DNA of 64,000 bases from contig NZ_CP025546.1 of assembly GCF_003614435.1 (NCBI RefSeq), forward strand, positions 2,294,001 through 2,358,000, written 5' to 3'. The position numbers and the translations under genes are program-made. Within the stretch, counting starts at the first letter, position 1. Each line of letters opens with the position of its first letter. Source of the DNA: Mycobacterium paragordonae. GTDB taxonomy: Bacteria > Actinomycetota > Actinomycetes > Mycobacteriales > Mycobacteriaceae. A model generated the notes under the pieces. The model did no database searches and was not told the origin of the DNA. It saw only the letters and a program-made list of their open reading frames with translations. Of this stretch, positions 23,482 through 40,684 are shown in pieces.

Positions 23482-24597
23482 TTAGAGCAATTCGATCAGC
23501 GGGATGGCCATCTCCGCCGCGGTCGCCGCACCGTGAAAGCCGACCAGCCGAGCAGACTCCGGCGGTTCGTGAGCGGTCGCCAGTACCGCCGATCCGCCGG
23601 TGCACACCACCACGACGTCGCCGATCCTCGGTAGATGAGCCGGGCTGACCGGGCCGAACAACCCTGCCGTGACGGCCTGCTCGCGGGTGTAGACATCCGC
23701 GCGACCGGCGAGGAGTTCGGACCAGGCGGCCAGCACATCAGCGGCGGCGCCGGGCTGGGTGTGCAGGTAGCGAACCCGCGGTTCGCCGGCGACCACCCGC
23801 ACCCCGGCGGCGAGCCGAGGGTCGGCGTCCAGGTCGATACGAGCGTCGGCGGCGACGTTCAATCCACCGTGGTCGGCCGTCACCAGCAGCGCCGCGTTGG
23901 CGGGCAGCGACTCGGCCAGCCTGCTCAGCAGCCCATCGACCCGCGCCGCGGCCTCGTGCCATTCGGGCGACCCGACGCCGAACACGTGCGCCATGGTGTC
24001 CAGGTCGGCGGTATAGCCGTAGACCAGGCCGGGTGCCGCGTTCAGTTCGTCGATCATCCGCCGGGCGTAGTCGTCGTCGGCGTGCGTGGGCACAAAGAGA
24101 GCGCCGTGATAGGCCGCCTCGGTCAGGCCGCTCCCGATGAACCATTCCGGCAGCAGGGCGCGAGCTGCCACTCCGGCGTGCGCGAGTCGGTCGAACCATG
24201 TTGGCAGAGGCTGCCATTCGTCGGCCGGCGGCTCGTCCCGCCAACGGATGTGGTTGAGGACGCGATCGGTGCCCGGGATGTTGAGCGTGAAGCCGAGGAT
24301 GCCGTGCTGTCCGGGGAGGGCGCCGGTGCCGAGCGACACCAGGCTCGTCGGCGTGGTGGACGGAAAGGTGCACGTCAGTTGCCGCAGCCGTCCCGCGCCA
24401 CCGCTCAGCACGGAGGCCAGCAGCGGAGCGTCGTCCACCAGATCGGGGAGCAGGTGCCAGCCCAGTCCGTCGACGAGCACCATCATGACGCGGTCGACGT
24501 CTCCGATCGACTCCGCCAGTCCCAGTGCGTCTGCCGCGCCGGACACTCCGAGCAGAGCCGCCGCGCTGGGCAGCACGTCGCAGATGGAACCGGGCAC
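23482..24597 (-). CDS. Alkaline phosphatase superfamily (nucleotide pyrophosphatase-like) protein
   Basis: This 371-residue protein has metal-site motifs of type I phosphodiesterases/nucleotide pyrophosphatases: MMVLVDGLGWHLL (Asp), TFPSTTPTSLVSLGTGALPGQHG (nucleophile Thr and metal Asn/Thr region), ADLDTMAHVFG and VTADHGGLN. There is no signal peptide, so it is cytoplasmic. It starts 21 bases after the DUF6390 stop at a GTG, so it is likely the last gene of the hydrogenase transcript. Substrate unknown. It may be an accidental passenger. Confidence 0.8.
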   Translation of the reverse strand: MPGSICDVLPSAAALLGVSGAADALGLAESIGDVDRVMMVLVDGLGWHLLPDLVDDAPLLASVLSGGAGRLRQLTCTFPSTTPTSLVSLGTGALPGQHGILGFTLNIPGTDRVLNHIRWRDEPPADEWQPLPTWFDRLAHAGVAARALLPEWFIGSGLTEAAYHGALFVPTHADDDYARRMIDELNAAPGLVYGYTADLDTMAHVFGVGSPEWHEAAARVDGLLSRLAESLPANAALLVTADHGGLNVAADARIDLDADPRLAAGVRVVAGEPRVRYLHTQPGAAADVLAAWSELLAGRADVYTREQAVTAGLFGPVSPAHLPRIGDVVVVCTGGSAVLATAHEPPESARLVGFHGAATAAEMAIPLIELL

Positions 24598-24618
24598 GAG
24601 CGCCAGTCTGACACGGAT

Positions 24619-25350
24619 TCAGCCATGCAGACGGTCATTGGTCAGCCGCAGCTGCCGGAAGGTGCTGTCGGCCAGCGCCCGCACCTGGTCCGGCTCCAGC
24701 CGTCCGCACAACCGGCCCCAATGCACGGCGACCTCGTCGCCCGCTGCCACGTCCGGCACCGCGCAGTACCCGTCGGCCCACACCTCGAGCGTCCGGGGAC
24801 CGGGCTCGGACAATGCGAGCGTTCGGCCGTCCCACACCAGCTGCCGGCACAGCACCTCGACATCGTCGCCTGCGCGCGAGACAACCGTGCCCCAGCTGAT
24901 CCGGCAACTGTCCAGCACATGCAGCGGATGCTGATCCATGCCGCGCCCCAGAAAGCGTGTCCAGGGATACACCCCGAAGACGTGGAAGCAGTGGTTGCCC
25001 GCGGCCTCGTTCGCCAGGTCGGGGGTGAGATGCGACCAGTAGCGCCCGGCCTGCGGGCCGATGATCGCCAGCAGTTCGTCGAAGAATCGACTGCCCGGCA
25101 CGTCGGCCCCGACACCGCCGCCGAGCCAATACGATTCGACCAACCGATAGTCCAGCGGATCGGTGATACCGGTCAGTCGCGACAACACCCGCAGATAGGG
25201 CCAGGCGCCGGAGAACCCGCGCGCCGCGTGCAGCACATCCTCGACCGCGCCGTCGCGCAGGGTGCCGCCCAGCGGGAGACCGCAGTAGCCGAGTGCGTTG
25301 GGCGCGTAGGCGTATCGGGCGAACATCTCGGCGCCGGCGGCGTCCGTCAC
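24619..25350 (-). CDS. DUF6390-like protein of the hydrogenase cluster
   Basis: This is a 243-residue soluble protein without recognised catalytic motifs. Visible features are an N-terminal RYAYAPNALGYCGLP, a central SYWLGGGV and NHCFHVFGVYPWTRFL, and scattered Cys/His. I match it from memory to DUF6390, seen mainly beside actinobacterial [NiFe]-hydrogenase genes. GTG 25350 overlaps the hypD stop by 4 bases. A role in cofactor assembly is inferred only from position. Confidence 0.7.
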   Translation of the reverse strand: MTDAAGAEMFARYAYAPNALGYCGLPLGGTLRDGAVEDVLHAARGFSGAWPYLRVLSRLTGITDPLDYRLVESYWLGGGVGADVPGSRFFDELLAIIGPQAGRYWSHLTPDLANEAAGNHCFHVFGVYPWTRFLGRGMDQHPLHVLDSCRISWGTVVSRAGDDVEVLCRQLVWDGRTLALSEPGPRTLEVWADGYCAVPDVAAGDEVAVHWGRLCGRLEPDQVRALADSTFRQLRLTNDRLHG

Positions 25351-26483: not shown

Positions 26484-26491
26484 TGCGTCTC

Positions 26492-26764
26492 CTAAACGAT
26501 CGCGGAAGAGTCGAAGGCTTCCAGCTCGGTGGTGTAGGCCTCGCCGAGTTTCTTGATGGCCGCCAGGGTCAGCAGCGCTTCGGCCTCGTCGATCTTGGCC
26601 ATCGCGAAGCCGACATGAACCAGCACCCAGTCGTCGGGCTCGGGCGGGTCACCTTCCAGCAGTCGCACGCTGATGGTGCGCTGTACACCGCTGACGTCGA
26701 CTTTGGCCAAATGGTTTGCCGGGTCGGTGATTGCGACGATCCGCCCCGGAATTCCCAGGCACAT
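26492..26764 (-). CDS. hypC: HypC-family chaperone, copy 2
   Basis: This is a 90-residue HypC/HupF protein starting MCLGIPGRI, with the essential Cys2. HypC carries iron between HypD and the hydrogenase large subunit and keeps the precursor open. It lies between hypE and hypD, the classical hypCD pairing, and GGAGAC-type sequence precedes the ATG. It differs clearly from the copy at 31575-31826, so the two may serve different steps or different partners. Confidence 0.95.
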   Translation of the reverse strand: MCLGIPGRIVAITDPANHLAKVDVSGVQRTISVRLLEGDPPEPDDWVLVHVGFAMAKIDEAEALLTLAAIKKLGEAYTTELEAFDSSAIV

Positions 26765-26782
26765 CGGTCGTCTCCTTTCTGG

Positions 26783-27895
26783 TCAGCAGATTCGGGGTAG
26801 TGGGTCGCCGACCAGCATGTCGACGATCCGGGTTCCGCCGAATCCGGTACGGAGCAGGACGCTTTCGCGTGGTTCGGTCACGATCTCCCCGACGTCGGCG
26901 GCATCGGATCCCAGCGGGTGCGAGCGCAGGGCGGCCAGACCCGCCTCGGCTTCCGCGGCCGCGACGACGGCAACGAACTTTCCTTCGTTGGCGACATACA
27001 GCGGGTCGATGCCGAGTAGTTCGCACGCTCCGTTGACCATCGGCCGCACCGGCAGGCGTTCTTCGTCGAGCACCACGCCGAGCCCGCAGGACTGCGCGAG
27101 TTCGTTGCAGACGGTGCCCACCCCGCCGCGGGTCGCGTCGCGCAGCCAGCGGGTGGACGGCGCCGCGGCCATCAAGAGTTCGACGAGTGGGCTCAGTGAC
27201 GCTGTGTCCGAGGCGATATCGGCTTCGATGGCCAGATCACCACGGGCGAGCAGAACCGCCATGCCGTGATCGCCCATCGACCCGGACAGCAGCACCCGGT
27301 CGCCGGCACGTACCGCCCCGGCCTTGAGGGTGCGGTCCGCGGGTATGACGCCGGTGCCCGTGGTGGTGATGAATACGCCGTCGGCTGCGCCGTTGGGCAC
27401 CACCTTGGTATCGCCGGTGACGATCTGCACTCCGGCATCGGCGGCCGCGGCGGCCATGTCCGCCACGATCTCTCTCAACTCGGCGATCGGGAAGCCCTCT
27501 TCGAGCACGAAGGCCGCCGAGATCCAGGACGGTACCGCGCCGGCCATCGCGAGGTCGTTACATGTGCCGTGCACGGCCAGGGTCCCGATCGAGCCACCTG
27601 GAAACCGTCTGGGCTGCACCACGAATGAGTCGGTGGACATCGCGATCCGCTCACCGCCGGGCAGCGTGAGCACCGCGCCGTCGCCGAGCGACTCGAGCAG
27701 CGGGTTGCGGAACGCGTCGAGGAACACCGCGTCCACCAGTGCCGCCGAGGCTTTGCCGCCGGCTCCGTGTGCCAGCGTGATGTGGTCGTCGAGTAGGCGG
27801 GGCCGCCGCCTGCGGAACGATTCGATGCGCTCGATCACCTGGCCCTCGGCGAATCGTGGTCCCGACGAGAGGTATTCTCCTGCAGAGTTTTTCAT
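26783..27895 (-). CDS. hypE: HypE, carbamoyl dehydratase making the cyanide ligand
   Basis: This 370-residue PurM-like ATPase dehydrates the carbamoyl group placed by HypF on its C-terminal cysteine to thiocyanate. The protein ends in PRIC, the invariant C-terminal motif. LLDDHITLAHGAGGKASAALV, STDSFVV and RDATRGGVGTVCNELA are typical PurM/HypE stretches. I chose ATG 27895, which overlaps the SIS gene stop as ATGA. The frame stays open further upstream only by overlap. Confidence 0.96.
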   Translation of the reverse strand: MKNSAGEYLSSGPRFAEGQVIERIESFRRRRPRLLDDHITLAHGAGGKASAALVDAVFLDAFRNPLLESLGDGAVLTLPGGERIAMSTDSFVVQPRRFPGGSIGTLAVHGTCNDLAMAGAVPSWISAAFVLEEGFPIAELREIVADMAAAAADAGVQIVTGDTKVVPNGAADGVFITTTGTGVIPADRTLKAGAVRAGDRVLLSGSMGDHGMAVLLARGDLAIEADIASDTASLSPLVELLMAAAPSTRWLRDATRGGVGTVCNELAQSCGLGVVLDEERLPVRPMVNGACELLGIDPLYVANEGKFVAVVAAAEAEAGLAALRSHPLGSDAADVGEIVTEPRESVLLRTGFGGTRIVDMLVGDPLPRIC

Positions 27896-28557
27896 GCCGC
27901 CCCCACCTTCTGATCGCATCTCTCCTGCACCGTCAGCCAGAGCCGATAGCCGAGTAGGGCCTGGGCCTCCTGGATGCGGTGCACGCTCTGGGACCTCACG
28001 GTGAAGCAGGCGTCCACATTCGGGTTGTTGGCGAAGGCGCCGCCGTCGTAGCCGGCGAATCCGATGGTGTAAAGGCCGCGTTGGCGGGCCTCGGTGAGCG
28101 CGGTGAGCAGGTTCGGCGAATTGCCGCTGGTGGACATGGCAACCGCGATGTCGCCGGACTTGGCGCGGGCGATCAGCTGACGGGCGAAGACCAACTCGAA
28201 TCCGACGTCGTTGCCCAGGGCGGTGACGATCGCCTGGTCGGTGGCCAAAGACCATGCGGGCAATGGGTTTCCGGCCGGGGGACGGGCGAACAACCCGGCC
28301 AGCGTGGTGCAGTCGGTGCTGCTGCCGCCGTTGCCGAAGGTGAACATCCGCCCGCCTGCGTTGAACCGGCGGGCCAGTTCGGTTGCGGCCCGGTTCAGCA
28401 GGTCGGCATTGGCGGCGAGCGTGGCGCGCCGCACCGCGAGGCTCTCGGCCGCCTTGGCCTGCGCGGACGCGGCCAGGTCCGCCAGCAGCGAATCGGGGTC
28501 GTCTTCCTGCGCGTCGATGAACGGGTACAGGAAGTTGGTGGGCTCCTGGCGTGTCAT
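27892..28557 (-). CDS. SIS-domain protein, GmhA-like (hydrogenase-associated)
   Basis: This 221-residue protein has a full phosphosugar isomerase (SIS) fold. FTFGNGGSSTDCTTL and MSTSGNSPNLLTAL are the two phosphate-binding Ser/Gly loops, and TVRSQSVHRIQEAQALLGYRLW is a C-terminal GmhA-like helix. Sedoheptulose-7-phosphate isomerase activity would normally be assigned, but no heptose biosynthesis genes are near. It overlaps hypE and the SIS-HypC gene by 4 bases each. Conservation inside a hyp operon suggests a maturation role, perhaps in handling a phosphorylated metabolite; this is inference. Confidence 0.82.
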   Translation of the reverse strand: MTRQEPTNFLYPFIDAQEDDPDSLLADLAASAQAKAAESLAVRRATLAANADLLNRAATELARRFNAGGRMFTFGNGGSSTDCTTLAGLFARPPAGNPLPAWSLATDQAIVTALGNDVGFELVFARQLIARAKSGDIAVAMSTSGNSPNLLTALTEARQRGLYTIGFAGYDGGAFANNPNVDACFTVRSQSVHRIQEAQALLGYRLWLTVQERCDQKVGAA

Positions 28558-29267
28558 GAGGCCTCCTGACCGGCGCGCGAGATCGCCGTTCCCGCGTGCA
28601 CGAGCACCAGGTCCCCGGCGGCGACCGGCCCTATCAGGGTCGTCACCACGGTCTCGGTGCCCTGCGCGGTACGCACGGTGGCTCGTTCGGTGTCCTGTGC
28701 GGTGAGCACTTCACCGAGTCGGCCCTCGTCGCTGCACGTGACGCAAACCTCCTCGGCGGCTGATGTTTTCAACAGGCCGGGGTGTTCGAAACACACGTGC
28801 GTCAGTTCCCAGAGCAGGTGGTAGAACAGGACGAAGCCGCCGGTCGCGGGCACCCTCGGATCGGGATCGTCCAGCCACAGCACATGGTCGGCGGCGCCGG
28901 GTTCGGGCCGGACGCCGCTGCCGATCCAGATCGTGGTGGCACCCCAGGCCGGGCAGCGCTGCATCACCGATCGCACGTCCGGATCCCCGGCGCCGGCCAC
29001 CGCGATCACCAGGTCGCCGGGGCGTACCGAAACCCGGACCTGATCCACCAGGTCGGGCCCGGTCAGCGCGACCGCCGGCAGCGCCCGTTTGCCCACGATC
29101 ACCGGGTGCACGAATTCGACCGCGATGTGCCTGGCATGCGGTTCCCACGACGGCGCGATCGACCACATGGTGGCGCCCGCCGCGAACCGCCTGGCCGCGG
29201 TGAAGGCGGCTCCCGCCAGATCAGCAGCCAGATCGGCGCCGAGTTCGCGATCCATGACCGTGTTCAT
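28554..29267 (-). CDS. SIS-like domain fused to a HypC-like domain
   Basis: This is a 237-residue fusion. Residues 1-170 resemble a degenerate SIS domain (GDLVIAVAGAGDPDVRSVMQ, TTIWIGSG, HVLWLDDPD), lacking the clear Ser/Thr phosphate loop of its neighbour. Residues about 173-231 read like HypC (EVCVTCSDEGRLGEVLTAQ, then LIGPVAAGDLVLVHAGTAIS). The HypC part is internal, so the usual N-terminal Met-Cys is replaced by C175-x-x-C178. It overlaps hypF and the second SIS gene by 4 bases each. It may dock a sugar-phosphate-type domain on the HypD/HypE complex. Function unproven. Confidence 0.78.
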   Translation of the reverse strand: MNTVMDRELGADLAADLAGAAFTAARRFAAGATMWSIAPSWEPHARHIAVEFVHPVIVGKRALPAVALTGPDLVDQVRVSVRPGDLVIAVAGAGDPDVRSVMQRCPAWGATTIWIGSGVRPEPGAADHVLWLDDPDPRVPATGGFVLFYHLLWELTHVCFEHPGLLKTSAAEEVCVTCSDEGRLGEVLTAQDTERATVRTAQGTETVVTTLIGPVAAGDLVLVHAGTAISRAGQEAS

Positions 29268-31573
29268 CGGTGTTCCTCCTCCCGCGCGATCAGCAGCGAG
29301 ACCGCGGCCTGGCCCAGCGCCAGCCCGCCGTCATTCGGCGGCACCAGGCGATGGGTCAGCACCTCGAAATCTCTGTCGTGCAGCCGATTAAGGCACTGTT
29401 CCAGCAACAGCACGTTCTGGAACACACCGCCGGTGAGGCCGACCAACCGGGTCGCCCCCGCCACCCGGGCGACCACGTCGGCGACGGCATCGGCCACCGC
29501 GAGGTGAAAGCCCGCGGCCAGCGCCGCCGGTGGCACCCCGTCGCGCAGCGCCGCCACCATCGCTCGCACCATCGGAGCCGGGTCGATCACTGCGTCCGCG
29601 CCTATCGCGAAGTGCAGCGGTTCGGGGGCCGGTGCCGTCTGCGCCAGTGCCTCGAGTTCGATGGCGGCCTGTCCCTCGTAGTCGATCCGGTGCCGCACCC
29701 CCAGCAACGAGGCGACCGCGTCGAACAGCCGGCCCATGCTCGAGCACGGAACACAGGCCGTACCACGATCCAGAAGCGAAAGCACGAAACGCAATTCATC
29801 GGCCGGGGCGGTAATCACCGGGGCCAGATCGGCATCCCAGCCGACACCGGCCTGCCGGAGCTGGGACAGCGCCATCCGCCACGGATTGCGCACCGCCGCG
29901 TCGCCGCCGGGCAGCGGCACCGGACGCAGGTGCCCGGCCCGCCGGAACCGGTGACTGTCGTGGCCCAGGGTGAGAATCTCACCGCCCCAGATCGTTTCGT
30001 CGCATCCGTAGCCTGTGCCGTCGAAGGCCAGGCCGATGATCGGCTCGCCGAGTCGCCCGTGCTCGGCCAGCAGCGAGACTACATGTGCGTGGTGGTGCTG
30101 GACCAGGTCCACCGGCCGGCCCTGCTGGTGGCGCTCGGCCCAGGCGCGAGTGTGGTAGCCGGGGTGCAGATCGGCGGCCAGTCGTGCCGGGCGGCCACGA
30201 ATCTCGCTGAGCTGGCCCACCGCCCGCTCGAAGGCCCGCAAGGTCTCATAGCCGCCCATGTCGCCGATGTGCCCGGACAGGTAGGCGCGGGAACCGTCGG
30301 TGAGACAGCAGGTGTTCTTCAGTTCTCCGCCCACGGCCAGCACCAGGGGCCCGTCGATCCCGAGCGCGACGGGCAGCGGTGCATAGCCGCGCGAACGCCG
30401 GATGGGTAGTTCGCCGCCCTTTCGCATGCGCACCACCGAGTCGTCGCAGGGCACGTGAATGGGCCGGTCGTGGTCGAGGACGGCGTCGCACAACGCTGGA
30501 AGTCGCCGCGCGGCATCCTCTTCGGTGAAACAGATGGGTTCCTCGGACCGGTTGGCGCTGGTCAGCACCAACGAGTCGAGCGGCCCGTCGAGCAGTAGAT
30601 GATGAACGGGGGAGTAGGGCAACATCAGGCCGATCAGCGGGCTGCCCGGCGCGACCGCGTCGCACACCGGTGCGTCAGGTCTGCGACGCAGCAACACGAT
30701 CGGCCGCGCCGAGCCGGTCAATACCGCGGCCTCGGTCTCGTCGACGAACGCGTAGCGCCGTGCCACCGCCAGATCGCGCACCAGGACGGCAAAAGGTTTG
30801 CTGCCGCGAGACTTTCGCACCCGCAACACGCGGACCACCGATTCCTCGTCCACGACGCACGCCAGGTGGTAGCCGCCGATGCCCTTGACGGCGACCACGG
30901 CGCCCGATGCCAGTGCATCCCGGGCCGCCGTTACAGCCGCTTCGGCACCCGCGGTGCGCCCGGCGGGCGAGTCGAACCACAGCGACGGCCCGCAGTCCGG
31001 ACAGGCGATGGGCTGGGCGTGGAACCGGCGGTCAGCGGGATCGTGGTACTCGGCGGCACACCGTTCGCACATGGCGAATCCCGACATGGTGGTGGCCGGG
31101 CGGTCATAGGGCAGCGACCGGATGATGGTGAAGCGCGGACCGCAGTTGGTGCAGGTGACGAACGGGTGCCGGTAGCGGCGGTTGTGCGGGTCAAACAGTT
31201 CGGCCCGGCAGTCGTCGCACATCGCGATATCGGGGGGGATCGGGGTGGCGGGGCCGCTCACGGCCCGGCTGGCGACGATGCGGAACCCGGGCGCGTCGCT
31301 GTCCCGGAATCCCACCTCGGTCACCGCAACCGAACTGATCAGGGCCAGCGGAGGCGCTTGATGCCGCAACCGGTGAGCGAATTCGTCCAGCCGATCACGT
31401 TCGCCCTGCACCTCGAGAAACACCGCACCCGAATCGTTTCCGACAAATCCCGTCAAACCGAGGTCGTTCGCGAGGCGGTGCACGAACGGACGGAAGCCGA
31501 CCCCCTGAACCACCCCGGTCACCGTGATGCGTCGCCGAACATCGTCGGACCGGGTCAGGGGAGCGGCCGTCAC
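29264..31573 (-). CDS. hypF: HypF, carbamoyltransferase for hydrogenase maturation
   Basis: This 769-residue protein uses carbamoyl phosphate and ATP to carbamoylate the C-terminal Cys of HypE. Domains in order: acylphosphatase (about 14-100, VQGVGFRPFVHRLA); double zinc finger (about 118-200, CDDCRAELFDP, CTNCGPRFT, CERCAAEYHDP, CPDCGPSL); YrdC-like (about 215-390, KGIGGYHLAC, KSRGSKPFAVLV); and Kae1-like (about 400-769, VQHHHAHVVSLLAEHG, GLAFDGTGYG, LTGGVFQNVLL). All four are complete. It starts at GTG 31573, one base after the hypC1 stop. Confidence 0.96.
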   Translation of the reverse strand: MTAAPLTRSDDVRRRITVTGVVQGVGFRPFVHRLANDLGLTGFVGNDSGAVFLEVQGERDRLDEFAHRLRHQAPPLALISSVAVTEVGFRDSDAPGFRIVASRAVSGPATPIPPDIAMCDDCRAELFDPHNRRYRHPFVTCTNCGPRFTIIRSLPYDRPATTMSGFAMCERCAAEYHDPADRRFHAQPIACPDCGPSLWFDSPAGRTAGAEAAVTAARDALASGAVVAVKGIGGYHLACVVDEESVVRVLRVRKSRGSKPFAVLVRDLAVARRYAFVDETEAAVLTGSARPIVLLRRRPDAPVCDAVAPGSPLIGLMLPYSPVHHLLLDGPLDSLVLTSANRSEEPICFTEEDAARRLPALCDAVLDHDRPIHVPCDDSVVRMRKGGELPIRRSRGYAPLPVALGIDGPLVLAVGGELKNTCCLTDGSRAYLSGHIGDMGGYETLRAFERAVGQLSEIRGRPARLAADLHPGYHTRAWAERHQQGRPVDLVQHHHAHVVSLLAEHGRLGEPIIGLAFDGTGYGCDETIWGGEILTLGHDSHRFRRAGHLRPVPLPGGDAAVRNPWRMALSQLRQAGVGWDADLAPVITAPADELRFVLSLLDRGTACVPCSSMGRLFDAVASLLGVRHRIDYEGQAAIELEALAQTAPAPEPLHFAIGADAVIDPAPMVRAMVAALRDGVPPAALAAGFHLAVADAVADVVARVAGATRLVGLTGGVFQNVLLLEQCLNRLHDRDFEVLTHRLVPPNDGGLALGQAAVSLLIAREEEHR

Positions 31574-31574
31574 C

Positions 31575-32329: not shown

Positions 32330-32338
32330 AGGCCGGAC

Positions 32339-32458: not shown

Positions 32459-33762
32459 GACGGGTTCCTTTCGGTGAGGGGTTCGATTTCGTCGGGGGAG
32501 AAGTACAGGTAGCGGCCGTACCACTCGTGCAGGTCTGCCGCCGGGTCGTCCTCGACCACTACCGCCACGTGTGTGTTGCCCTCGACGTCCTCGTGCACCG
32601 ACGTGACGCGGGCGGTCTTGCCGGCCACGAAGATGTCCTGTGCGTCGGCGTTGCGCCGCGGGCGGAGTACCACCCTGCTGCCGCGGGCGACCCGCACTCC
32701 CTGAACCAGGACTGCATCGACGTCGGGGCTAACCGCGTTGTCGGCCAATGGATCCCACCAGTCGACGCCATCGGGTATCTCCGGAATGAGCCCGGCGGCG
32801 CGGTGCGGGTCGCGCAGCACACCGTGCAGGCGACCCATGTCCTCGGCCGACATCGCGTCACACTCGTCGATGATCCGTGCCGCCCGCGGATCGGTGGCCC
32901 GGGCCTGAGCTTTCTCCTCGTCGGTCATCGTCATCACGCGCAGCGTGAGTATCTCGTCGATCTCCGTGCAGTCGTACAGGGCGGTGCTGCTCTGCGCGGC
33001 CACTTCGGGGTGGTCGTAGAGGATGATCGGCGAGACCAGCAGCATGTCGTGTGCGCCCGGCGGTCCGGCCAGCACCGGGAAACACCGGTGCTGGGCACAC
33101 CGTGACGCCGCGCCGGCCGCCGCGGCCGGCGGCTCCAGCAGTGAAACGAATTCACCACCAACGACTTCGGCGATCAGATGGGTGCCGATCATCGAGCGGG
33201 CCAGCGCATCGTCCTTGTGGGTGGCCGCCGCCCCGGTGTTGGCCAGGTGGACGGAAACTCTCAGCAGCTCACCATCAGGCTCGGTACGCACCACGAGCCG
33301 GCCCCGCACCTCGTACCGTTCGCGAACCAATCGGCCACCCTCGACGGCCTCGATATCGGTTGCGGGCGCCGCTGATACGGGCAGCGTCCACGGCGCATCG
33401 ACCAACGGCAGCGGCCCGAACGAGGTTTCGCATTCCACCGCTTCGTCCCAGGTCAGCCAGGACCCGGCCGGGGTGCTCAGCGCGTCGACCGCCTCGAAGC
33501 CGCCGGCTACCGCGCGTTGTGCCTGGCGGCGCTGCAGTTGCAGAAAACGCACCACCAGGGTGATCGCATCCGCCGAGCGGACCAGGAACTGCGCCGCCAG
33601 CGCGTCGTCTTCGCCGAGTCCGGCCGCGGCCGCCCCCGGCGGCCCGAGTACGCCGAATTGCCAGCGGGATTGATTCTTGCTCGACGTGCCGCGGTAGGGG
33701 TAGAGCAGGTAGCCCTCGTAGAGCACCGCGTCGGCGACCGCGCGGGCCCGGTCCCAACTCAT
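32446..33762 (-). CDS. Unknown 438-aa hydrogenase-cluster protein
   Basis: I do not recognise a family. The protein starts MSWDRARAVADAVLYEGYLLYPYRG and has a Cys-containing centre (SRCAQHRCFPVLAGPP, IDECDAMSAED). The C-terminal region of about 100 residues looks beta-rich (RGSRVVLRPRRNADAQDIFV, TRVAVVVEDDPAADLHEWYG-like). There is no signal peptide or membrane helix. ATG 33762 overlaps the DUF6084 stop as ATGA; the longer frame to 33888 is overlap. It belongs to a block with DUF5947 and DUF6084, so a shared task in assembly or electron transfer is likely. Confidence 0.75.
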   Translation of the reverse strand: MSWDRARAVADAVLYEGYLLYPYRGTSSKNQSRWQFGVLGPPGAAAAGLGEDDALAAQFLVRSADAITLVVRFLQLQRRQAQRAVAGGFEAVDALSTPAGSWLTWDEAVECETSFGPLPLVDAPWTLPVSAAPATDIEAVEGGRLVRERYEVRGRLVVRTEPDGELLRVSVHLANTGAAATHKDDALARSMIGTHLIAEVVGGEFVSLLEPPAAAAGAASRCAQHRCFPVLAGPPGAHDMLLVSPIILYDHPEVAAQSSTALYDCTEIDEILTLRVMTMTDEEKAQARATDPRAARIIDECDAMSAEDMGRLHGVLRDPHRAAGLIPEIPDGVDWWDPLADNAVSPDVDAVLVQGVRVARGSRVVLRPRRNADAQDIFVAGKTARVTSVHEDVEGNTHVAVVVEDDPAADLHEWYGRYLYFSPDEIEPLTERNPSWTS

Positions 33763-34415
33763 GGCGCTACCTGCCGGGTAGCCGCATCGGCCAGCAGCGC
33801 CGTCACCGCGTGGTCGAGGTCGAGCAGTCCGTTCACCGACTTGTAACCGGCCAGCGCCGAGACGGTTTCGTGGCGCAGACGGACCCATCCGGTGTTCGGG
33901 TAGTGCAGGGAGATGAGGTCACGCCAGACACTCACCGGCATGTCGTAACGATCCTCGCAGTCCCATGACACCTGCTGCACCGAGAACCCGCGCGCCGACT
34001 TCACGAAAATGGTTCCACTGAACAGGAATTGCAGGGGCAGCGCGCCGTGATCGAGGGCGTGCAGGTATTTCGCCGCCGTCACCTCGAAGTCGTAGGTGCA
34101 GTCCAGTGGTAGCGCCACCGTGGTGTTGCCGGCGAATCCCGGCACCATCGCGCCACAGTGTTGCCACAGGAAGGTGCGCTGAGTGGTGGCCCATCGCTCG
34201 CGAGTGCCGAACAGGTCGGTGAGTCCGGCGGCCTCCTGGTCGTTGTAGGAGCGCCGTAGTGGTTCAATGCGGACCTGGCAGCGCAGCGCGATCGCGTGCA
34301 CGGGGTCTTCCGGGCTGGCAACGACGCCGATGCGCGCGGTCAGCATCGGTGTGACGGCATACGGTTCGGGCGCCACGTCGAGAACGGCGAAGGACACGTC
34401 CAAGTGGTCGGTCAT
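33759..34415 (-). CDS. DUF6084-like protein of the hydrogenase cluster
   Basis: This 218-residue soluble protein starts MTDHLDVSFAVLDVAPEPYA at an ATGA overlap with DUF5947. The first half is beta-rich (ALRCQVRIEPLRRSY, TVALPLDCTYDFEVTAAKYL). The second half has LQFLFSGTIFVKS and VSWDCEDRYDMPVSVWRDL. I recall this as DUF6084, confined to actinobacterial hydrogenase clusters. No catalytic motif is evident. It is translationally coupled on both sides. Confidence 0.75.
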   Translation of the reverse strand: MTDHLDVSFAVLDVAPEPYAVTPMLTARIGVVASPEDPVHAIALRCQVRIEPLRRSYNDQEAAGLTDLFGTRERWATTQRTFLWQHCGAMVPGFAGNTTVALPLDCTYDFEVTAAKYLHALDHGALPLQFLFSGTIFVKSARGFSVQQVSWDCEDRYDMPVSVWRDLISLHYPNTGWVRLRHETVSALAGYKSVNGLLDLDHAVTALLADAATRQVAP

Positions 34416-35035
34416 GGCGGTGTCTCGCGCGCACGGGCCGCGATCCGCGCGAAGAATTCGTCGATGAACGCCCGCGCCTCCTGCCCGCCGTCGAATCCGT
34501 GCCACAGCGTGCGCAGCCGTCCGACGAATTCGTAGCAGGCATCGATCGGGACGAGAAACGTTTGCGGCGAGCCGGTTTCCGGCACCCGCACCAGGAGCGC
34601 CTCGACGTCATCGGCGAGTAGGTCGGCGCGGCGATCGGCGGCCCGGATGGAGTTCCACATGTCCAGGTCCAGCTCGGATTCGCAGGCGCCGGCCGGCCCG
34701 GGATAAAACGCGACGGTGCGGCCCAGCGCGGAGTTGGTGAAGAAGAACGCGACCCCGACGGGAATCTGCATCGCCTCCCAGGCGCGCCGATCCAGGGCGA
34801 AATCGGTGAAGGCCAGGTACCGGTCGGGCACCGCGCGGTAGCGCAGTTCGGCGTGCGGGTCGGTGAACAGCAGGTAGCAGCCGCGGCAGACGCACATCAG
34901 CTGCCGCCCAGCCACATTCACCACGTGCTGGTGCTCGTCGGCTATCGTCTCGGCGCACATCTCACACCGTTCCCCGGCCGGCTCGGGAGGTCGCCGGCTG
35001 CTGATCCGGGTCAACACGTCGTACGGACTGCTCAT
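34412..35035 (-). CDS. DUF5947-like cysteine-rich protein of the hydrogenase cluster
   Basis: This 207-residue protein has an N-terminal metal-site candidate: C24-x-x-C27 (ERCEMCAETI) and C48-x-C50-x-x-C53 (MCVCRGCYLLF), enough to bind zinc or iron as a rubredoxin- or zinc-ribbon-like knuckle. The rest is alpha/beta with FTDFALDRRAWEAMQIPVG and WNSIRAADRRADLL. I match it from memory to DUF5947. ATG 35035 overlaps the hhyE stop as ATGA. Adjacent genes also have Cys-rich metal sites, so iron-sulfur assembly or electron relay is plausible. Confidence 0.76.
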   Translation of the reverse strand: MSSPYDVLTRISSRRPPEPAGERCEMCAETIADEHQHVVNVAGRQLMCVCRGCYLLFTDPHAELRYRAVPDRYLAFTDFALDRRAWEAMQIPVGVAFFFTNSALGRTVAFYPGPAGACESELDLDMWNSIRAADRRADLLADDVEALLVRVPETGSPQTFLVPIDACYEFVGRLRTLWHGFDGGQEARAFIDEFFARIAARARETPP

Positions 35036-35901
35036 GCCGAAGCTCCCAGCATTTCGCGCGGCAACGCCAGCGACAGCACCCCGTCCCGGGTCAGCAGGGG
35101 CAGTGGCTCGAGGTGGCTGCCAGGCCCGGCCCCCGCCTGGATGACGTCGAATTCCGTTGCACATCGCGGGCATCGGAGCAAGCCGCCGTGCAGCTGCGCG
35201 CCGGCCAGCGTGTCGACGCAGACCGGGCAGTGGTCGCGGTAGGCCAGGCTGCGGTCACCGACGCGGCAGGCCAGCACCGGCGTGCCGGCGATCAGGAAGC
35301 CGGCCACCTCGCCGGGGACCAGGTCGGCCAACTCCGGCGCCGGGTGCCAGGCCGCGATTCCGTTGGAACGCATTGGCGCCAGCAGTGATTCGGCCGGGAT
35401 GACGTCGGTGTGCCGCGCGGCCACCACCTCGATTTCGGAAATCTCCGGCGCAGCGGCCCTTATCGCGTCTTCCACCGCGAACTCGAGCGTCACTGCCGAG
35501 GACGGACAACTCTTGCAGCTGCCCTGGAAAGCCAGCCGCACCGTGTCGTCGGCGATCTCGAGCAGCTCGACATCGCCGCCGTGCGAACCCAGATAGGGGC
35601 GCACCCGGTCCAGGGCGTCACCGACCCGGCGCCGCACATCGTGCGGGTGCAGGCCGTGGACCAGGAGCAGGCTGGCCACCAGGTCGTCGGTGGCCAGCCG
35701 CTCGGCTAATTGAGGGTCGGCATGCGCCAAGATCCGTTGCAGGCCGGCACCGTACAGTCCGACCACCTCGCGGACCAGCTGCTGCGCGCGGTCGTATGCG
35801 GCCGTCCCGCCCGCGGCGCAGGAATCCAGTAGCGTCTGGATCCGGTCGCCCGCGGTGCGCCACTCGGTGTCTGATTCCCGGTCATCTGGGCGAGCCACCA
35901 T
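35032..35901 (-). CDS. hhyE: NifU-domain plus Rieske-fold iron-sulfur protein (HhyE position)
   Basis: This 289-residue protein has an N-terminal helical region, a NifU C-terminal-type domain at about 88-160 (LGSHGGDVELLEI and GSCKSCPSSAVTLE, C129-x-x-C132), and a Rieske-fold domain at about 180-285. In the latter the normal CxH...CxxH ligands read C225-P-V-C228 ... C244-P-R-C247: both histidines are gone and four cysteines remain. Its place right after hhyL (4-base gap) is that of HhyE, the iron-sulfur protein proposed as electron relay in M. smegmatis (from memory). It could carry electrons from HhyS or aid cluster assembly. Confidence 0.8.
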   Translation of the reverse strand: MVARPDDRESDTEWRTAGDRIQTLLDSCAAGGTAAYDRAQQLVREVVGLYGAGLQRILAHADPQLAERLATDDLVASLLLVHGLHPHDVRRRVGDALDRVRPYLGSHGGDVELLEIADDTVRLAFQGSCKSCPSSAVTLEFAVEDAIRAAAPEISEIEVVAARHTDVIPAESLLAPMRSNGIAAWHPAPELADLVPGEVAGFLIAGTPVLACRVGDRSLAYRDHCPVCVDTLAGAQLHGGLLRCPRCATEFDVIQAGAGPGSHLEPLPLLTRDGVLSLALPREMLGASA

Positions 35902-35905
35902 CTCC

Positions 35906-37705
35906 TCACTCCATTACGGGTGACTGGGTGGGCGTGTGCAATCTCTCCAGCGTCTTGCCCTTGCCCAGGTACATGTGCACGCCGCAGGGCAGGCACGGAT
36001 CGAAGCTGCGCACCGTGCGCATCACGTCGATGCCTTTGAAGTTCTCCCGATCGTTCTCCTCGAAGATCGGCTGTCCTTGCACCGCGTCCTCGTACGGACC
36101 CGGCGTGCCGTAGCTGTCGCGCGGGTTGGCGTTCCACGGGGTGGGCGGGTACGGATGGTAGTTGGCGATCTTGCCGTCGCGGATCACCATGTGGTGGCTC
36201 AGTACGCCGCGCACGGCCTCGGTGAATCCGCAGCCGATGCCCTCGTCGGGCACTTCGAATTTCTCCCAGGTTTTCGTTCGCCCCGCACGGATCTCGGCCA
36301 AAGCCTGTTCGGCGAAATACAGTCCGCACGCGGCGGCGTACGCCTGGAAGTAGGTACGGGCACGGTTGCGTTCGATGGTGTTGGAGCCGTGCCTAGGCAC
36401 CTTCCACTCGAACTCGACCGGGCCCTTCAGCGCGGTCTTGGGCAGGTTGATCTTGACGCTGTTGCCGGTGGCCTTGACGTAGCCGATATCGACGAGGCCG
36501 GCCAGCGCGGTCGACCACAACCGGGCCAGCGGGCCGCCGCCGGTGTCCAGCGCCAGGTGGTCCTTGCCGTCGAACCAGCGCGGTGACATCACCCAGCTGT
36601 AATTGCCGCCGTCCATTTCGCGCTTCTGCGGATGCGGGTTGGTGTGCTGGTTCCACGGGTGCCGCCGGTCCACCGGGTTGCCCAGCGGATCGGTCTTGAC
36701 GAACATCTCCTGGTCGGTCCAGTCGTCGTAATACGAACTGCCCAAAAGGATCCGGATGCCCAGGTTGATGTCGACCAGGGAATGGGTGAGGAGCTTGCCG
36801 TCGACGACGACGCCCGGGGTGACGTACATCGCGTTGCCCCAGCGCTCCATGTCCTTGTACTCGAAGTTGCACACCTCGGGATCCTGGAACGAGCCCCAGC
36901 AGCCCAGCAGGGTGCGGCGCAGGCCCACCTTCTCGTAGCCGGGCAGTGCCTCGTAGAAGAAGTCGAACAGGTCGTCGTGCATCGGGACGACCTTCTTCAT
37001 GAACTCGACGTAGCGCATCAACCGGGTCATGTAGTCGGTCATCAGCTGGATCGTGGCCACCGTGCCGACGCCGCCGGGGTACAGCGTGGACGGATGGACG
37101 TGCCGACCTTCCATGAGACAGAACATCTCTCGGGTCCAGCGGCTGACCTGGAGTGCTTCGCGGTAGAACTCACCGCTGAACGGGTTGAGCGACCGCATGA
37201 TGTCCGCGATCGTCTTGTAACCGTGCGCGTCGGCGTGCGGCGCCGCGGTCTTCTCCGCCTTAGCAAGTACACCCGGATTTGTTTCGGCGACCATCTTCTC
37301 GCAGAAGTCGACCCCCACCAGGTTCTCCTGGAATATGTTGTGGTCGAACATGTATTCCGCGGCCTCGCCCAGGTTGACGATCCATTCGCCGATGTGCGGC
37401 GGCTTGACCCCGTAGGCCATGTTCTGCGCGTAGCAGGAGCAGGTGGCGTGGTTGTCGCCGCAGATGCCGCAGATGCGGCTGGTGATGAAATGGGCGTCGC
37501 GAGGGTCCTTGCCCTTCATGAAGATCGAGTAGCCGCGGAAGATCGACGACGTGCTGTGGCATTCGACCACTTCGCGGTTCTCGAAATCGATCTTGGTGTA
37601 GATGCCGAGGCTGCCGACGATCCGGGTGATGGGGTCCCAGGCCATTTCGACGAGCTGACCGGGTTCCCGCTTGGAAGTTGACGGTTCGGGAATGATGGTT
37701 GTCAT
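35906..37705 (-). CDS. hhyL: Group 1h [NiFe]-hydrogenase large subunit
   Basis: This 599-residue catalytic subunit oxidises H2 at a Ni-Fe(CN)2CO site. Nickel ligands are C79/C82 in RICGICGDNH (L1) and C571/C574 in DPCLPCGVH (L2). After H577 there is a 22-residue tail, the substrate of the protease at 31826-32329. Sequence and length fit the actinobacterial high-affinity group 1h (former group 5). I start at ATG 37705, 68 bases after hhyS; the frame extends upstream without a likely start. No export signal is seen. Confidence 0.96.
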   Translation of the reverse strand: MTTIIPEPSTSKREPGQLVEMAWDPITRIVGSLGIYTKIDFENREVVECHSTSSIFRGYSIFMKGKDPRDAHFITSRICGICGDNHATCSCYAQNMAYGVKPPHIGEWIVNLGEAAEYMFDHNIFQENLVGVDFCEKMVAETNPGVLAKAEKTAAPHADAHGYKTIADIMRSLNPFSGEFYREALQVSRWTREMFCLMEGRHVHPSTLYPGGVGTVATIQLMTDYMTRLMRYVEFMKKVVPMHDDLFDFFYEALPGYEKVGLRRTLLGCWGSFQDPEVCNFEYKDMERWGNAMYVTPGVVVDGKLLTHSLVDINLGIRILLGSSYYDDWTDQEMFVKTDPLGNPVDRRHPWNQHTNPHPQKREMDGGNYSWVMSPRWFDGKDHLALDTGGGPLARLWSTALAGLVDIGYVKATGNSVKINLPKTALKGPVEFEWKVPRHGSNTIERNRARTYFQAYAAACGLYFAEQALAEIRAGRTKTWEKFEVPDEGIGCGFTEAVRGVLSHHMVIRDGKIANYHPYPPTPWNANPRDSYGTPGPYEDAVQGQPIFEENDRENFKGIDVMRTVRSFDPCLPCGVHMYLGKGKTLERLHTPTQSPVME

Positions 37706-37773
37706 AGCGAATACTGCTCTCCGCCCTGCGGGCTGTGTGGAGGGGTGAGGCCGGCCGCGACCGGCCGTGGCGC

Positions 37774-38829: not shown

Positions 38830-39142
38830 AGTGCAGCTTTCCGGGGCCGGGCTGATGCCCCTACGCCGCCGGAGTCGACCGTCGGCCCACTTGCGCGGCG
38901 CTATCTTCAGGCCTACTCGCGCTATTGGGCAATGTCAACGGTTCGCCGTGACTGCGTCGTTGGACAGACGTGTCACAACACCTGGCGCTTGCCGAAAGAG
39001 GCTGTTTCGCAAAGTTATCGGAGTACGGCATTCCAGATGATGAACCGCCGGTTCCGAACTTTATTGTCGGCTCCGTTATTTCCATCCTGCGGCCTATTCG
39101 CAAGAGCGCATCGGCGCGAAATGCGGCTACGCTGACCGGATT
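38830..39142 (-). promoter_or_regulatory. 313-base gap upstream of hhyS, with a candidate promoter
   Basis: No gene is supported here. On the minus strand a perfect TTGACA lies at 38938-38933, followed after 17 bases by TAGGCC (38915-38910), a weak -10. The transcript start would be about 75 bases before the hhyS ATG. I see no Nur-type TTGCAA box in the gap. The remaining ~200 bases are less GC-rich than the flanks and may hold activator sites. Confidence 0.4.
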
Positions 39143-39478
39143 TCAGGAAACCTCGAGTGAAGTCACCAGAAACTCGTTGCCGCGCAGCACCTCGACGTCC
39201 GAGCTTTCGCATTGTGGACACCAGATCGACCATGGCGAAGTGATCTCCGACTGGCCGTCGCAGGCACGGCAGCGCACCTGGGCGGCGACGTGTTCGATGC
39301 ACAACTCGGCGTCGGGCATGTCCTCGGCATCTCGGACCAGCGTCCAACAGAATGACAGGGAGTCGGGGACGACCTGCCGAAGGGAGCCGATTCGCACCCG
39401 CACCAGGTCGACGTGACGGCCCGCGGCGTGGGACTTGGCCACCCCGGCGATCGCCTGGCACAGCGAGAGTTCATGCAC
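39143..39478 (-). CDS. hypA: HypA, nickel metallochaperone
   Basis: This 111-residue protein delivers nickel to the hydrogenase large subunit. The N-terminus MHELSLC provides the nickel site (Met1, His2, Glu3). The zinc site is C70-x-x-C73 and C87-x-x-C90. The length is typical. It lies 90 bases downstream of nicT on the same strand and 313 bases upstream of hhyS, so it may share the Nur-controlled nicT transcript rather than the hydrogenase one. Its usual partner GTPase HypB is not in the window. Confidence 0.95.
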   Translation of the reverse strand: MHELSLCQAIAGVAKSHAAGRHVDLVRVRIGSLRQVVPDSLSFCWTLVRDAEDMPDAELCIEHVAAQVRCRACDGQSEITSPWSIWCPQCESSDVEVLRGNEFLVTSLEVS

Positions 39479-39568
39479 CGTCGCTCACGGTAGCACGCCG
39501 AAAAGCGCTGTGGGTCAGAACAACTGACGGAAGAATCCGGTGATGTAGGCAGGGGAAGCCGGTTCCAG

Positions 39569-40684
39569 CTAGCCCACGCGCTCCGTCGCGGGCGCCCACT
39601 TCTCTTCGATTCGTCCGTAGCGCCATACCAGCAGCGCGACGGCCCAGGTGAGGACGAACATCCCGACGACGACGAAGCCCACCGTGTTCAGGTCCAGCCC
39701 GGCGATCCAGTCCCACAGGCCGCCGCGCCAGCCGAGGTGATCGGCGAACAGCCCGAGCAGCTCCACCGTGCCGATCAGCAGCGCCACCGCCACCGACAGC
39801 CCGGTGACGGTGAGGTTGTAATAGATCTTGCGCACCGGGTTGGAGAACGCCCAGCCGTAAGCGAAGTTCATGAATGACCCGTCGATCGTGTCCAGCAGAC
39901 ACATGCCGGCCGTGAACAAGACCGGCAGGCACAGGATGGCGTACCAGGGCAGCCCCGACGCCGCGCTGGTGCCGGCCAGCACCAGCAGCGCGATCTCGGT
40001 GGCCGTGTCAAAGCCCAGGCCGAACAGCAGTCCGAGCGGGTACATGTGCCAGGACTTGGTGATCGACTTGGTGAGGCGTCCGAGGAATCGGTTGATCAGG
40101 CCGCGGTTGTCCAGCTGCTGCTCGAGTTCCGCTTCATTGAACTCACCCTGGCGCAACCGCCGGAAAACCCGCAGGATTCCGACCAGCACGACGATGTTCA
40201 TCAGGGCGATCAAGTAGAGGAACCCGCCCGAGACGCTGGTACCGATCAGACCGGTATAGAAGTGCAGTCGTGATGAGTCGTCCTCGACGGGGCCCACGAC
40301 GGCGCGCAGCCCGACTGCCAGCAGCAGCGCCAGGGTGAACACCACCGAGGAGTGGCCCAGGGAGAAGAAGAAGCCGACGGCCAGGGGCCGCTGGCCCTCA
40401 CTCATCAGCTTGCGGGTGGTGTTGTCGATGGCGGCGATGTGGTCCGCGTCGAACGCATGCCGCAGCCCCAACGTATAGGCGGTGAGTCCGATGCCCACGC
40501 CAAATGCCTTGTGGCCCAAGCTCAGATGCGCCGGCTCCACCACCAGGATCAGGGTCAGCCAGCCCACCAGATGCAGCGCCGCGATCACCGCCAGCATCAG
40601 GCCCAGCCGCCCCCACTCCGCGGGTGACAGCGCCGCCCGCAGCCGCGACCAGGGCGACTGCCGGTCGAGTTGGTCGCTGGCCAT
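39569..40684 (-). CDS. nicT: NicT, high-affinity nickel/cobalt permease (NiCoT family)
   Basis: This 371-residue membrane protein has about eight helices. The family signatures are all present: RHAFDADHIAAIDN in helix II, LGHSSVV, GLGFDTATE and LFTAGMCLLDTIDG. It imports nickel for hydrogenase (and possibly urease). GGAAGG precedes ATG 40684. A Nur-type operator covers its -35 element, predicting repression when nickel is plentiful. A nicT homologue (Rv2856) is kept at this position in M. tuberculosis although no hydrogenase genes accompany it there. Confidence 0.95.
   Translation of the reverse strand: MASDQLDRQSPWSRLRAALSPAEWGRLGLMLAVIAALHLVGWLTLILVVEPAHLSLGHKAFGVGIGLTAYTLGLRHAFDADHIAAIDNTTRKLMSEGQRPLAVGFFFSLGHSSVVFTLALLLAVGLRAVVGPVEDDSSRLHFYTGLIGTSVSGGFLYLIALMNIVVLVGILRVFRRLRQGEFNEAELEQQLDNRGLINRFLGRLTKSITKSWHMYPLGLLFGLGFDTATEIALLVLAGTSAASGLPWYAILCLPVLFTAGMCLLDTIDGSFMNFAYGWAFSNPVRKIYYNLTVTGLSVAVALLIGTVELLGLFADHLGWRGGLWDWIAGLDLNTVGFVVVGMFVLTWAVALLVWRYGRIEEKWAPATERVG

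What the first reader, a model, noticed from the sequence alone, without database searches (positions are those of the whole stretch)
23482..40684. Complete 17-kb group 1h [NiFe]-hydrogenase island with a 17-gene coupled operon
From hhyS (38829) to the phosphatase-superfamily gene (23482) all genes run leftward, with 4-bp stop/start overlaps or gaps of 1-68 bases. Structural, maturation, metal-site and unknown proteins are interleaved. hypA and nicT lie upstream on the same strand. This suggests a self-contained atmospheric-H2 oxidation module in a slow-growing mycobacterium.
Basis: partly seen in the sequence, partly recalled or inferred. Interest (0 to 1): 0.75.

Follow-up and report, generated by a model that had tools for sequence, protein, structure and literature searches.

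The report
Air-hydrogen operon with hidden assembly module
A mycobacterium carries a known kind of gene block for living on traces of hydrogen in air, and inside it sits a little-understood three-part set of proteins, found together with one of two old versions of the enzyme-assembly machinery, that may be a missing step in building the enzyme's metal centre.

Summary
In detail: 17 leftward genes from hhyS to 23482, tightly packed, with hypA and nicT upstream. It is a group 1h hydrogenase operon (HhyL matches 5AA5 at 1091 bits, Huc at 123), a kind known from M. smegmatis.

Three corrections. No hypB lies here; the genome's copy is near its Huc locus. The last gene (phosphodiesterase) occurs in 34 of 248 genus genomes without HhyL. 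The whole 5' leader of hhyS is Rfam's hya RNA (RF02992), with covariation support.

The new part is genes 11 and 12: SIS1 fused to a HypC paralogue (HupF2), and SIS2. SIS1 keeps the three zinc ligands of the sugar isomerase GmhA but lost the phosphate loop; SIS2 keeps the loop and lost those ligands. This predicts one composite active site. The trio also occurs unfused or differently fused, in five loci between hypC and hypD. In the loci examined it segregates with one of two deep HypD/HypE clades (25 against 24 rows, one change). None of 15 clade-A genomes shows a full HypX.

I read it as an unrecognised cofactor-assembly module. Supplying the CO ligand is its boldest, unproven role.

The parts
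38910..38938 (-). Promoter-like pair TTGACA-N17-TAGGCC; predicted transcript start at about 38903, next to the first base of the hya RNA
   Evidence: Read. The pattern TTGACA-N14..20-TA[AG]A[CT][CTA] is found upstream of hhyS in 66 of 76 named loci with a mapped hhyS start (4 of the 80 loci were dropped for lack of one). The window's own TAGGCC does not fit that pattern, and the scan does not list it.
38831..38902 (-). hya RNA (RF02992); would make up the whole 5' leader, one base before the hhyS ATG
   Evidence: cmscan 90.8 bits, gathering 56.8; 7 of 11 pairs with changes on both sides (1 of 500 shuffles reaches 7), 0 of 500 shuffles reach the covariation score
39569..40684 (-). nicT, nickel transporter (NicO)
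   Evidence: PF03824 356.6 bits
39143..39478 (-). hypA
   Evidence: PF01155 99.9 bits
37774..38829 (-). hhyS, small subunit; no twin-arginine motif seen near its N-terminus
   Evidence: PF01058, PF14720; sequence
35906..37705 (-). hhyL, catalytic large subunit (GTG start at 37777 possible)
   Evidence: PF00374; 5AA5 1091 bits; RICGICGDNH and DPCLPCGVH read
35032..35901 (-). hhyE, NifU domain plus C-terminal CxxC pair
   Evidence: PF01106 79 bits; HhyE described in PMC6883350 (passages)
34412..35035 (-). DUF5947 protein, CxxC motifs
   Evidence: PF19372 244 bits on the longer ORF
33759..34415 (-). DUF6084 protein
   Evidence: PF19562 308 bits on the longer ORF
32446..33762 (-). 438-aa protein without Pfam or NCBIfam match
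   Evidence: relatives in most of the actinobacterial 1h loci
32339..32458 (-). 39-aa DUF6893 protein with one hydrophobic stretch; candidate membrane tether (inference, by eye)
   Evidence: PF21833 44.4 bits on the longer ORF
31826..32329 (-). hycI-type maturation protease
   Evidence: PF01750 62.6 bits
31575..31826 (-). hypC1
   Evidence: PF01455 74.1 bits (ORF from 31832)
29264..31573 (-). hypF
   Evidence: five HypF-type domains
28554..29267 (-). SIS1-HupF2 fusion: degenerate GmhA-like domain with the zinc ligands at H46, E50, H149 (window protein numbering), plus a CxTCSD-type HypC paralogue
   Evidence: SIS by iterated HMM, profile comparison 99.8% and BLASTP 35% over 144 columns with a double-SIS relative; residues; tail. 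Pfam calls only the HypC part.
27892..28557 (-). SIS2: GmhA-like domain with NGGS and STS phosphate loop, without H64/E68/H183
   Evidence: PF13580 59.8 bits; GmhA structures 99.6 bits; residues
26783..27895 (-). hypE, clade A
   Evidence: PF00586/PF02769 on the longer ORF; tree
26492..26764 (-). hypC2
   Evidence: PF01455 89.5 bits
25347..26483 (-). hypD, clade A
   Evidence: PF01924 514.9 bits; trees
24619..25350 (-). DUF6390 protein; also seen at varying positions in many, not all, related loci
   Evidence: PF19927 345 bits
23482..24597 (-). Type I phosphodiesterase; adjacent, not tied to the hydrogenase
   Evidence: PF01663 148 bits; in 34 of 248 genus genomes without HhyL

Best explanation
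This is a group 1h [NiFe]-hydrogenase operon. HhySL with HhyE oxidises trace H2 and feeds electrons to respiration. HypF, HypE and a HypC/HypD scaffold build Fe(CN)2CO, HypA (with HypB from the second hyp set) inserts nickel, and HycI trims HhyL. Expression starts at one promoter whose transcript begins with the hya RNA, which would be the whole leader and so probably controls translation of hhyS. Within the maturation genes, SIS1-HupF2 and SIS2 form one hetero-oligomeric enzyme. SIS1 supplies the zinc site and SIS2 the phosphate-binding loop of a single GmhA-like active site, and HupF2 docks it on the HypCD/HypE machinery. It acts on a phosphorylated metabolite during cofactor assembly. Shown here: gene content, RNA covariation, complementary residue loss, alternative fusions, co-segregation with one HypD/HypE clade in the loci examined. 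From known families: the roles of Hhy and Hyp proteins. Inferred: transcript start, complex formation, catalysis and its step in assembly.
For: Group 1h. Operon; homologous M. smegmatis genes rise together at slow growth or in stationary phase (passages of PMC2799521, and PMC5445863). RNA. SIS (best 120 listed relatives of each of two searches): SIS1 keeps H64/E68/H183 in 120, 120 and 120 of 120 fused relatives, and in 120, 119 and 120 of 120 double-SIS relatives; SIS2 of 54 single-domain ORFs keeps the STS loop and Q175 in 54 of 54 and lost H64 and E68 in 54 of 54. [quoted passage not shown] Fusions: SIS1-HupF2 in 53 ORFs of 53 loci, 52 with the CxTC motif; SIS1-SIS2 in 120 of 120 listed relatives. 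Order hypC-SIS1-HupF2-SIS2-hypD in L218 and L219. One change separates 25 SIS+ from 24 SIS- rows on the HypD tree, and 27 from 24 on the HypE tree.
Against: Pfam does not call SIS1 a SIS domain. 17 of the 24 SIS- rows are named loci judged only within their flanks; 10 SIS+ loci were fetched for their SIS match. The whole-genome search used E 1e-15, which also missed the SIS1 of G150. In 5 of 19 SIS loci no hyp gene is in view. G182, G586 and G471 have clade-B HypD and neither the SIS pair nor HypX, so the pair is not universally needed. The tail lacks the N-terminal Met-Cys of HypC. In the double-SIS form domain 1 also keeps Q175 and domain 2 keeps H183, so the split is complete only in the mycobacterial form. 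Expression data are from M. smegmatis.
Confidence: 0.66

Rival explanations
1. The SIS pair is a dead enzyme kept as a sensor or scaffold: it binds a sugar phosphate and gates cofactor assembly by carbon or energy state, with no chemistry.
For: A non-enzyme SIS protein, DiaA, is among the structural hits (its role is recalled). Neither mycobacterial domain alone has a full GmhA site. SIS2 scores far below the TIGR00441 cut-off (101 against 209.45).
Against: The three zinc ligands in SIS1 (120 of 120 each, fused form) and the STS loop in SIS2 (54 of 54) stay invariant, which a pure scaffold would not require.
Confidence: 0.3
2. The SIS1-HupF2-SIS2 trio makes or delivers the CO ligand in HypX-less aerobes, from a phosphorylated carbon compound, and hands it to iron on HypCD through the HupF2 part.
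For: 0 of 15 genomes with clade-A HypD show a full-length HypX; 4 of 7 genomes with clade-B HypD do, two within 1.4 kb of hhyL and two within 8.4 kb. HypX makes CO under oxic conditions, and the enzymes for the anoxic route are unknown (PMC12134894 passages).
Against: The four HypX genomes of that count are all of one genus code (g7), so this is close to one event. G086 has both a double-SIS gene and HypX. G182, G586 and G471 have neither. The own genome's Huc locus has clade-B HypD, and no HypX was found in that genome. GmhA chemistry is not known to release CO (recalled). Two of the 15 clade-A genomes are under 90% complete (G013, G264).
Confidence: 0.12
3. The SIS genes are ordinary phosphoheptose isomerases for heptose synthesis that lie among hyp genes by accident.
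For: Public names call relatives D-sedoheptulose 7-phosphate isomerase and MSMEG_2706 gmhA (PMC5445863 passage). In 5 of 19 SIS loci no hyp gene is in view.
Against: Co-segregation with the HypD/HypE clade, fusion to a HypC paralogue, and complementary residue loss.
Confidence: 0.05
4. The hya element acts as DNA (an operator) rather than as RNA.
For: It lies directly behind the promoter-like pair, and its P1 loop is highly conserved. Its single-sequence fold is no better than shuffles (z -1.13).
Against: Both-sided changes and G-U pairs in both helices; 93.4% of cells paired, against at most 59.7% when slid.
Confidence: 0.06

Closest known systems
Hhy (group 1h) cluster of Mycobacterium smegmatis, MSMEG_2702-2722
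   Same: hypA, hhyS, hhyL, hhyE, M52 protease, hypC, hypF, a gene annotated gmhA, hypE, hypC and hypD; induced at slow growth or in stationary phase (passages of PMC2799521, PMC5445863, PMC6883350)
   Different: M. smegmatis has a hypB (MSMEG_2721) beside hhyS; the window has none. SIS1-HupF2 is not named in the passages read.
GmhA, sedoheptulose 7-phosphate isomerase
   Same: Same family of SIS domains; zinc ligands and phosphate loop are all present when SIS1 and SIS2 are taken together
   Different: Split over two proteins; SIS2 below the TIGR00441 cut-off; SIS1 fused to a HypC paralogue
HypC/HupF chaperones
   Same: PF01455 match of the tail, 34.0 bits against a cut-off of 28.5; a His aligned with that of hypC1 and hypC2 is invariant
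   Different: Internal CxTC motif instead of N-terminal Met-Cys; fused to SIS1
HypX, aerobic CO synthase
   Same: An accessory of only some such clusters; noted as not always present in high-affinity H2 oxidisers (PMC4767420 passage)
   Different: Formyltransferase and hydratase domains (PMC12134894 passage), not SIS; found here in Streptomyces-like group 1h clusters with clade-B HypD
hya RNA, RF02992
   Same: 72 of 72 model positions, 90.8 bits
   Different: None found; this is a member. Described here: it would be the whole leader, and copies remain where the hydrogenase was lost (G150, G603).

Membership tests
Group 1h [NiFe]-hydrogenase | Large subunit closest to the actinobacterial-type enzyme of C. 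necator (5AA5; that it is group 1h is recalled) rather than to other solved groups | tested here: met
   1091 bits to 5AA5; next best 165; Huc 123. No tree against HydDB references was made.
Group 1h [NiFe]-hydrogenase | L1 and L2 cysteine motifs (recalled) | tested here: met
   RICGICGDNH and DPCLPCGVH in the sequence
Group 1h [NiFe]-hydrogenase | HhyE iron-sulfur protein downstream, no cytochrome b partner | tested here: met
   PF01106 gene at 35032-35901; no cytochrome b Pfam hit among the 17 genes
Group 1h [NiFe]-hydrogenase | Oxidises H2 at or below atmospheric level | not testable with these tools
   needs gas measurements
hya RNA RF02992 | Score above the curated gathering threshold, upstream of a hydrogenase gene | tested here: met
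   90.8 against 56.8 bits, just before hhyS
GmhA (TIGR00441) | Family score cut-off | tested here: not met
   SIS2 101.0 and the double-SIS relative 199.2, against 209.45; SIS1 no NCBIfam hit
GmhA (TIGR00441) | Zinc ligands and phosphate loop in one domain | tested here: not met
   split between SIS1 and SIS2
GmhA (TIGR00441) | Isomerase activity on sedoheptulose 7-phosphate | not testable with these tools
   needs enzyme assay
HypC/HupF (PF01455), for the SIS1 tail | Pfam gathering score | tested here: met
   34.0 against 28.5 bits
HypC/HupF (PF01455), for the SIS1 tail | N-terminal Met-Cys (recalled) | tested here: not met
   tail is internal; CxTC instead, both Cys 120 of 120
HypX in this genome | Formyltransferase domain in an ORF of about 570 aa with a hydratase half | tested here: not met
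   PF00551 ORFs of 212, 297 and 313 aa only; no full-length match to a Streptomyces-like HypX

The most novel reading that the evidence does not exclude
SIS1-HupF2-SIS2 is a second, HypX-independent way for aerobes to make the CO ligand of the [NiFe] centre: a zinc and phosphate-loop enzyme with one composite active site that turns a phosphorylated carbon compound into a carbonyl donor and passes it to iron on a dedicated clade of HypC/HypD/HypE through its HypC-like part.
Probability: 0.12. Interest if true: 0.88.

Novelty: new variant of a known kind. Interest (0 to 1): 0.55.

Why it matters
[quoted passage not shown] An aerobe without a recognisable HypX, such as this one, fits neither case. 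How Hhy is switched on in starvation is named as open in PMC13098282 (passage). This locus offers a concrete gene pair and a concrete leader RNA for the two questions. A link between HypD, HypE and a GmhA-type protein was noted before as unclear (PMC3231954 passage), and a SIS cluster is listed among hydrogenase neighbours (PMC12727194, Table 1, passage). The split active site, the HypC fusion and the clade co-segregation make that link testable.

Tried and rejected
Self-contained module: rejected, no hypB here. Phosphodiesterase as a hydrogenase gene: rejected (in G603 it survives beside nicT after loss of the island). HypX in the own genome: not found. G548 as an orphan hya RNA: below the gathering score (38.4 bits) and no island gene in the fetched 19 kb, so treated as chance. 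Single-sequence fold of the leader: z-score only -1.13. Possible pairing of the P1 loop CUCC with the ribosome-binding site: considered by eye; both sides barely vary, so covariation cannot test it. PDB search for the 438-aa protein gave only weak hits (best E 0.037), and that for SIS1-HupF2 one chance hit (E 0.55). The alignment misplaced the N-terminal Cys of HypC; I rely on the CxTC motif and the His only. Alignment A2 includes chance matches and was not used for pair counts. Model R1 was built from 33 of the leaders it later finds. One search counts matched stretches, not ORFs; the ORF count is.
Full report
WHAT IS THERE. HhyL matches the C. necator structure 5AA5 at 1091 bits; the next structure scores 165 bits and M. 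smegmatis Huc 123. HhyL is 99% identical to that of a named M. gordonae contig (L068). The genome has a second hydrogenase of Huc type (1105 bits to 7UUS); the nearby second hyp set has a HypD and HypE of a different clade. Upstream lie hypA, nicT, and genes with Pfam hits for a pyridine-nucleotide oxidoreductase, a hydrolase and malate:quinone oxidoreductase. The cluster kind is known: in M. smegmatis MSMEG_2702-2722 contains a like set, induced at slow growth or in stationary phase (passages of PMC2799521, and PMC5445863; HhyE in PMC6883350, passages).

WHAT IS NOT PART OF IT. The phosphodiesterase gene at 23482 occurs in 97 of 248 genus genomes at E 1e-90, 34 of which have no HhyL at 1e-60 (HhyL: 137 of 248; cross-count). 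In G603 no island gene was recognised between nicT and the phosphodiesterase, only the hya RNA. hypB is missing from the island. A HypB-type GTPase with a His-rich start lies beside the second hyp set, while M. smegmatis has one next to hhyS. So the island is not self-contained.

THE LEADER. RF02992 matches 38831-38902 over its full model. A TTGACA-N14..20-TA[AG]A[CT][CTA] pair lies upstream in 66 of 76 named loci with a mapped hhyS start, 4 of the 80 loci being dropped for lack of one. In the window a variant of it, TAGGCC, puts the predicted start at about 38903, so the RNA would be the whole leader. In 248 genus genomes 109 have the RNA and 137 have HhyL: 106 both, 31 HhyL only, 3 RNA only (G150, G548, G603). 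In 396 phylum genomes 6 have it, all of the genus. Both RNA searches used stricter filters that lose weak matches. My own model also finds it in three Rhodococcus loci and one Gordonia locus, and in 71 of 80 named loci upstream of hhyS at E 0.002 or better, 62 at 1e-10 or better (the 80 are the best of at least 589, and 32 of the 33 training rows come from them). The four Nocardia loci have no hit. On 64 aligned copies (59 distinct) 93.4% of cells pair, 7 of 11 pairs change on both sides (51 cells); 1 of 500 shuffles reaches 7 pairs and none reaches the covariation score. That alignment is fitted to the model. The P1 loop is highly conserved, as for a ligand or protein site. Copies persist where the structural genes decay or are lost (G150, L040; G603, L185). 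I found no paper on its function: searches returned none, and none of the 10 of 11 papers listed holds 'hya motif'; the original description is not held.

THE SIS1-HUPF2-SIS2 TRIO. Gene 11 is named in databases as a HypC/HupF protein, and Pfam calls only that part. Its N-terminal 180 residues are a SIS domain: an iterated profile from it and one from gene 12 pick up the same 115 ORFs; profile comparison with double-SIS relatives gives 99.8% probability, and BLASTP 35% identity over 144 columns including the H, E and H positions. The double form itself scores 199.2 bits to the GmhA model in two stretches. In seven loci the two SIS domains are one protein of about 400 residues, as in 120 of 120 listed relatives. 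On an alignment with GmhA, SIS1 keeps H64, E68 and H183 (fused form 120, 120 and 120 of 120; double form 120, 119 and 120 of 120) and lost the STS loop. SIS2 keeps NGGS, STS and Q175 (54 single ORFs scoring over 250 bits: all 54, except S58 in 53; double form 119 of 120) and lost H64 and E68 (54 of 54; 120 of 120). The single form also lost H183 in 53 of 54, while the double form keeps it in 119 of 120, and domain 1 of the double form keeps Q175 in 120 of 120. [quoted passage not shown] The mycobacterial pair therefore looks like one asymmetric enzyme with a composite site.

The tail of gene 11 is a HypC paralogue with invariant CxTC cysteines and His (120 of 120 each). The fusion is seen in 53 ORFs of 53 loci, 52 with the motif. 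In eight loci without the fusion a stand-alone gene of that type is present (L052, L054, L055, L058, L060, L063, L064, L067; two of them, L054 and L063, read CVVCSD). In L218 and L219 the order is hypC-SIS1-HupF2-SIS2-hypD-hypE, and in L211, L212 and L217 the SIS genes also lie between hypC and hypD. Of 19 SIS loci fetched, 14 show hyp genes in view and 5 do not (L202, L203, L205, L210, L216).

CO-SEGREGATION. HypD splits into two deep clades (its 40 rows include the window). All 15 clade-A rows (the window and 14 loci chosen by HhyL or hya RNA) come from genomes with the SIS pair. Of clade-B genomes searched whole, 0 of 7 show SIS1 at E 1e-15 (G182, G128, G369, G023, G352, and G586 and G471, which I picked for odd leaders or HhyL); that cut-off also missed the SIS1 of G150, though not its SIS2. 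With more loci, 10 of them fetched for their SIS match, 25 SIS+ and 24 SIS- rows are separated by one change on the HypD tree, and 27 and 24 on the HypE tree. The own genome's second set, L188, was left out of the count because that genome has both kinds. For 17 of the 24 SIS- rows only the locus was examined.

HYPX. Full-length HypX is found in 6 of 70 genomes searched (G369, G128, G352, G171, G023, G086; all over 400 bits); the other rows of that call are weak partial matches of 45 bits or less. None of the 15 clade-A genomes shows it (G013 and G264 are 86% and 64% complete). Four of the 7 clade-B genomes do, two within 1.4 kb of hhyL and two within 8.4 kb, all of one genus code, so the contrast is close to a single evolutionary event. 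G086 has both HypX and a double-SIS gene. Three clade-B genomes have neither. A paper on S. avermitilis says hypX is a separate operon and not always present in such bacteria (passage of PMC4767420). So a CO role for the trio is possible but not forced.

NOVELTY. The hydrogenase operon is ordinary and known. The SIS link was noted before without explanation (PMC3231954; PMC12727194 Table 1; passages). In the held library I found no paper describing the HypC fusion, the split site or the HypD-clade link: one search listed 15 of 42 papers and 12 of 19, of which I saw listings and the passages named above. That is a limited look at a limited library.

Noticed in passing
L185:9917-10001 (G603): hya RNA left between nicT and the phosphodiesterase; no hydrogenase-island gene recognised in between.
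   Followed up: partly
L040:5201-14317 (G150): Decaying island: hya RNA and hyp/SIS genes remain while hhyS is broken, hhyL, hhyE, DUF5947 and DUF6084 are not found, and the 438-aa gene and DUF6390 are fragments.
   Followed up: partly
window 32339-32458: 39-residue protein with one hydrophobic stretch (DUF6893), seen in most mycobacterial and some other 1h clusters; candidate membrane tether for a hydrogenase without cytochrome b.
   Followed up: no
L102, L108, L110, L122, L111, L136 (upstream of hhyS): These leaders keep the promoter-like pair but have altered hya RNAs, some with an apparently repeated 3' hairpin (by eye).
   Followed up: no
L190 (G471) and G602:C328:165058-166824: A 69-70% identical HhyL in the genus, in L190 with a Streptomyces-like gene order; G602 carries it beside a normal copy. 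Suggests a second acquisition.
   Followed up: no
L050, L051, L056, L059: Streptomyces-like group 1h clusters carry a full HypX near the hydrogenase genes.
   Followed up: yes
L214 and L220 (G086): One genome has both a double-SIS gene near its 1h genes and a 48% identical HypX on another contig.
   Followed up: partly
window 22405-23364: PPE-family gene directly left of the phosphodiesterase.
   Followed up: no
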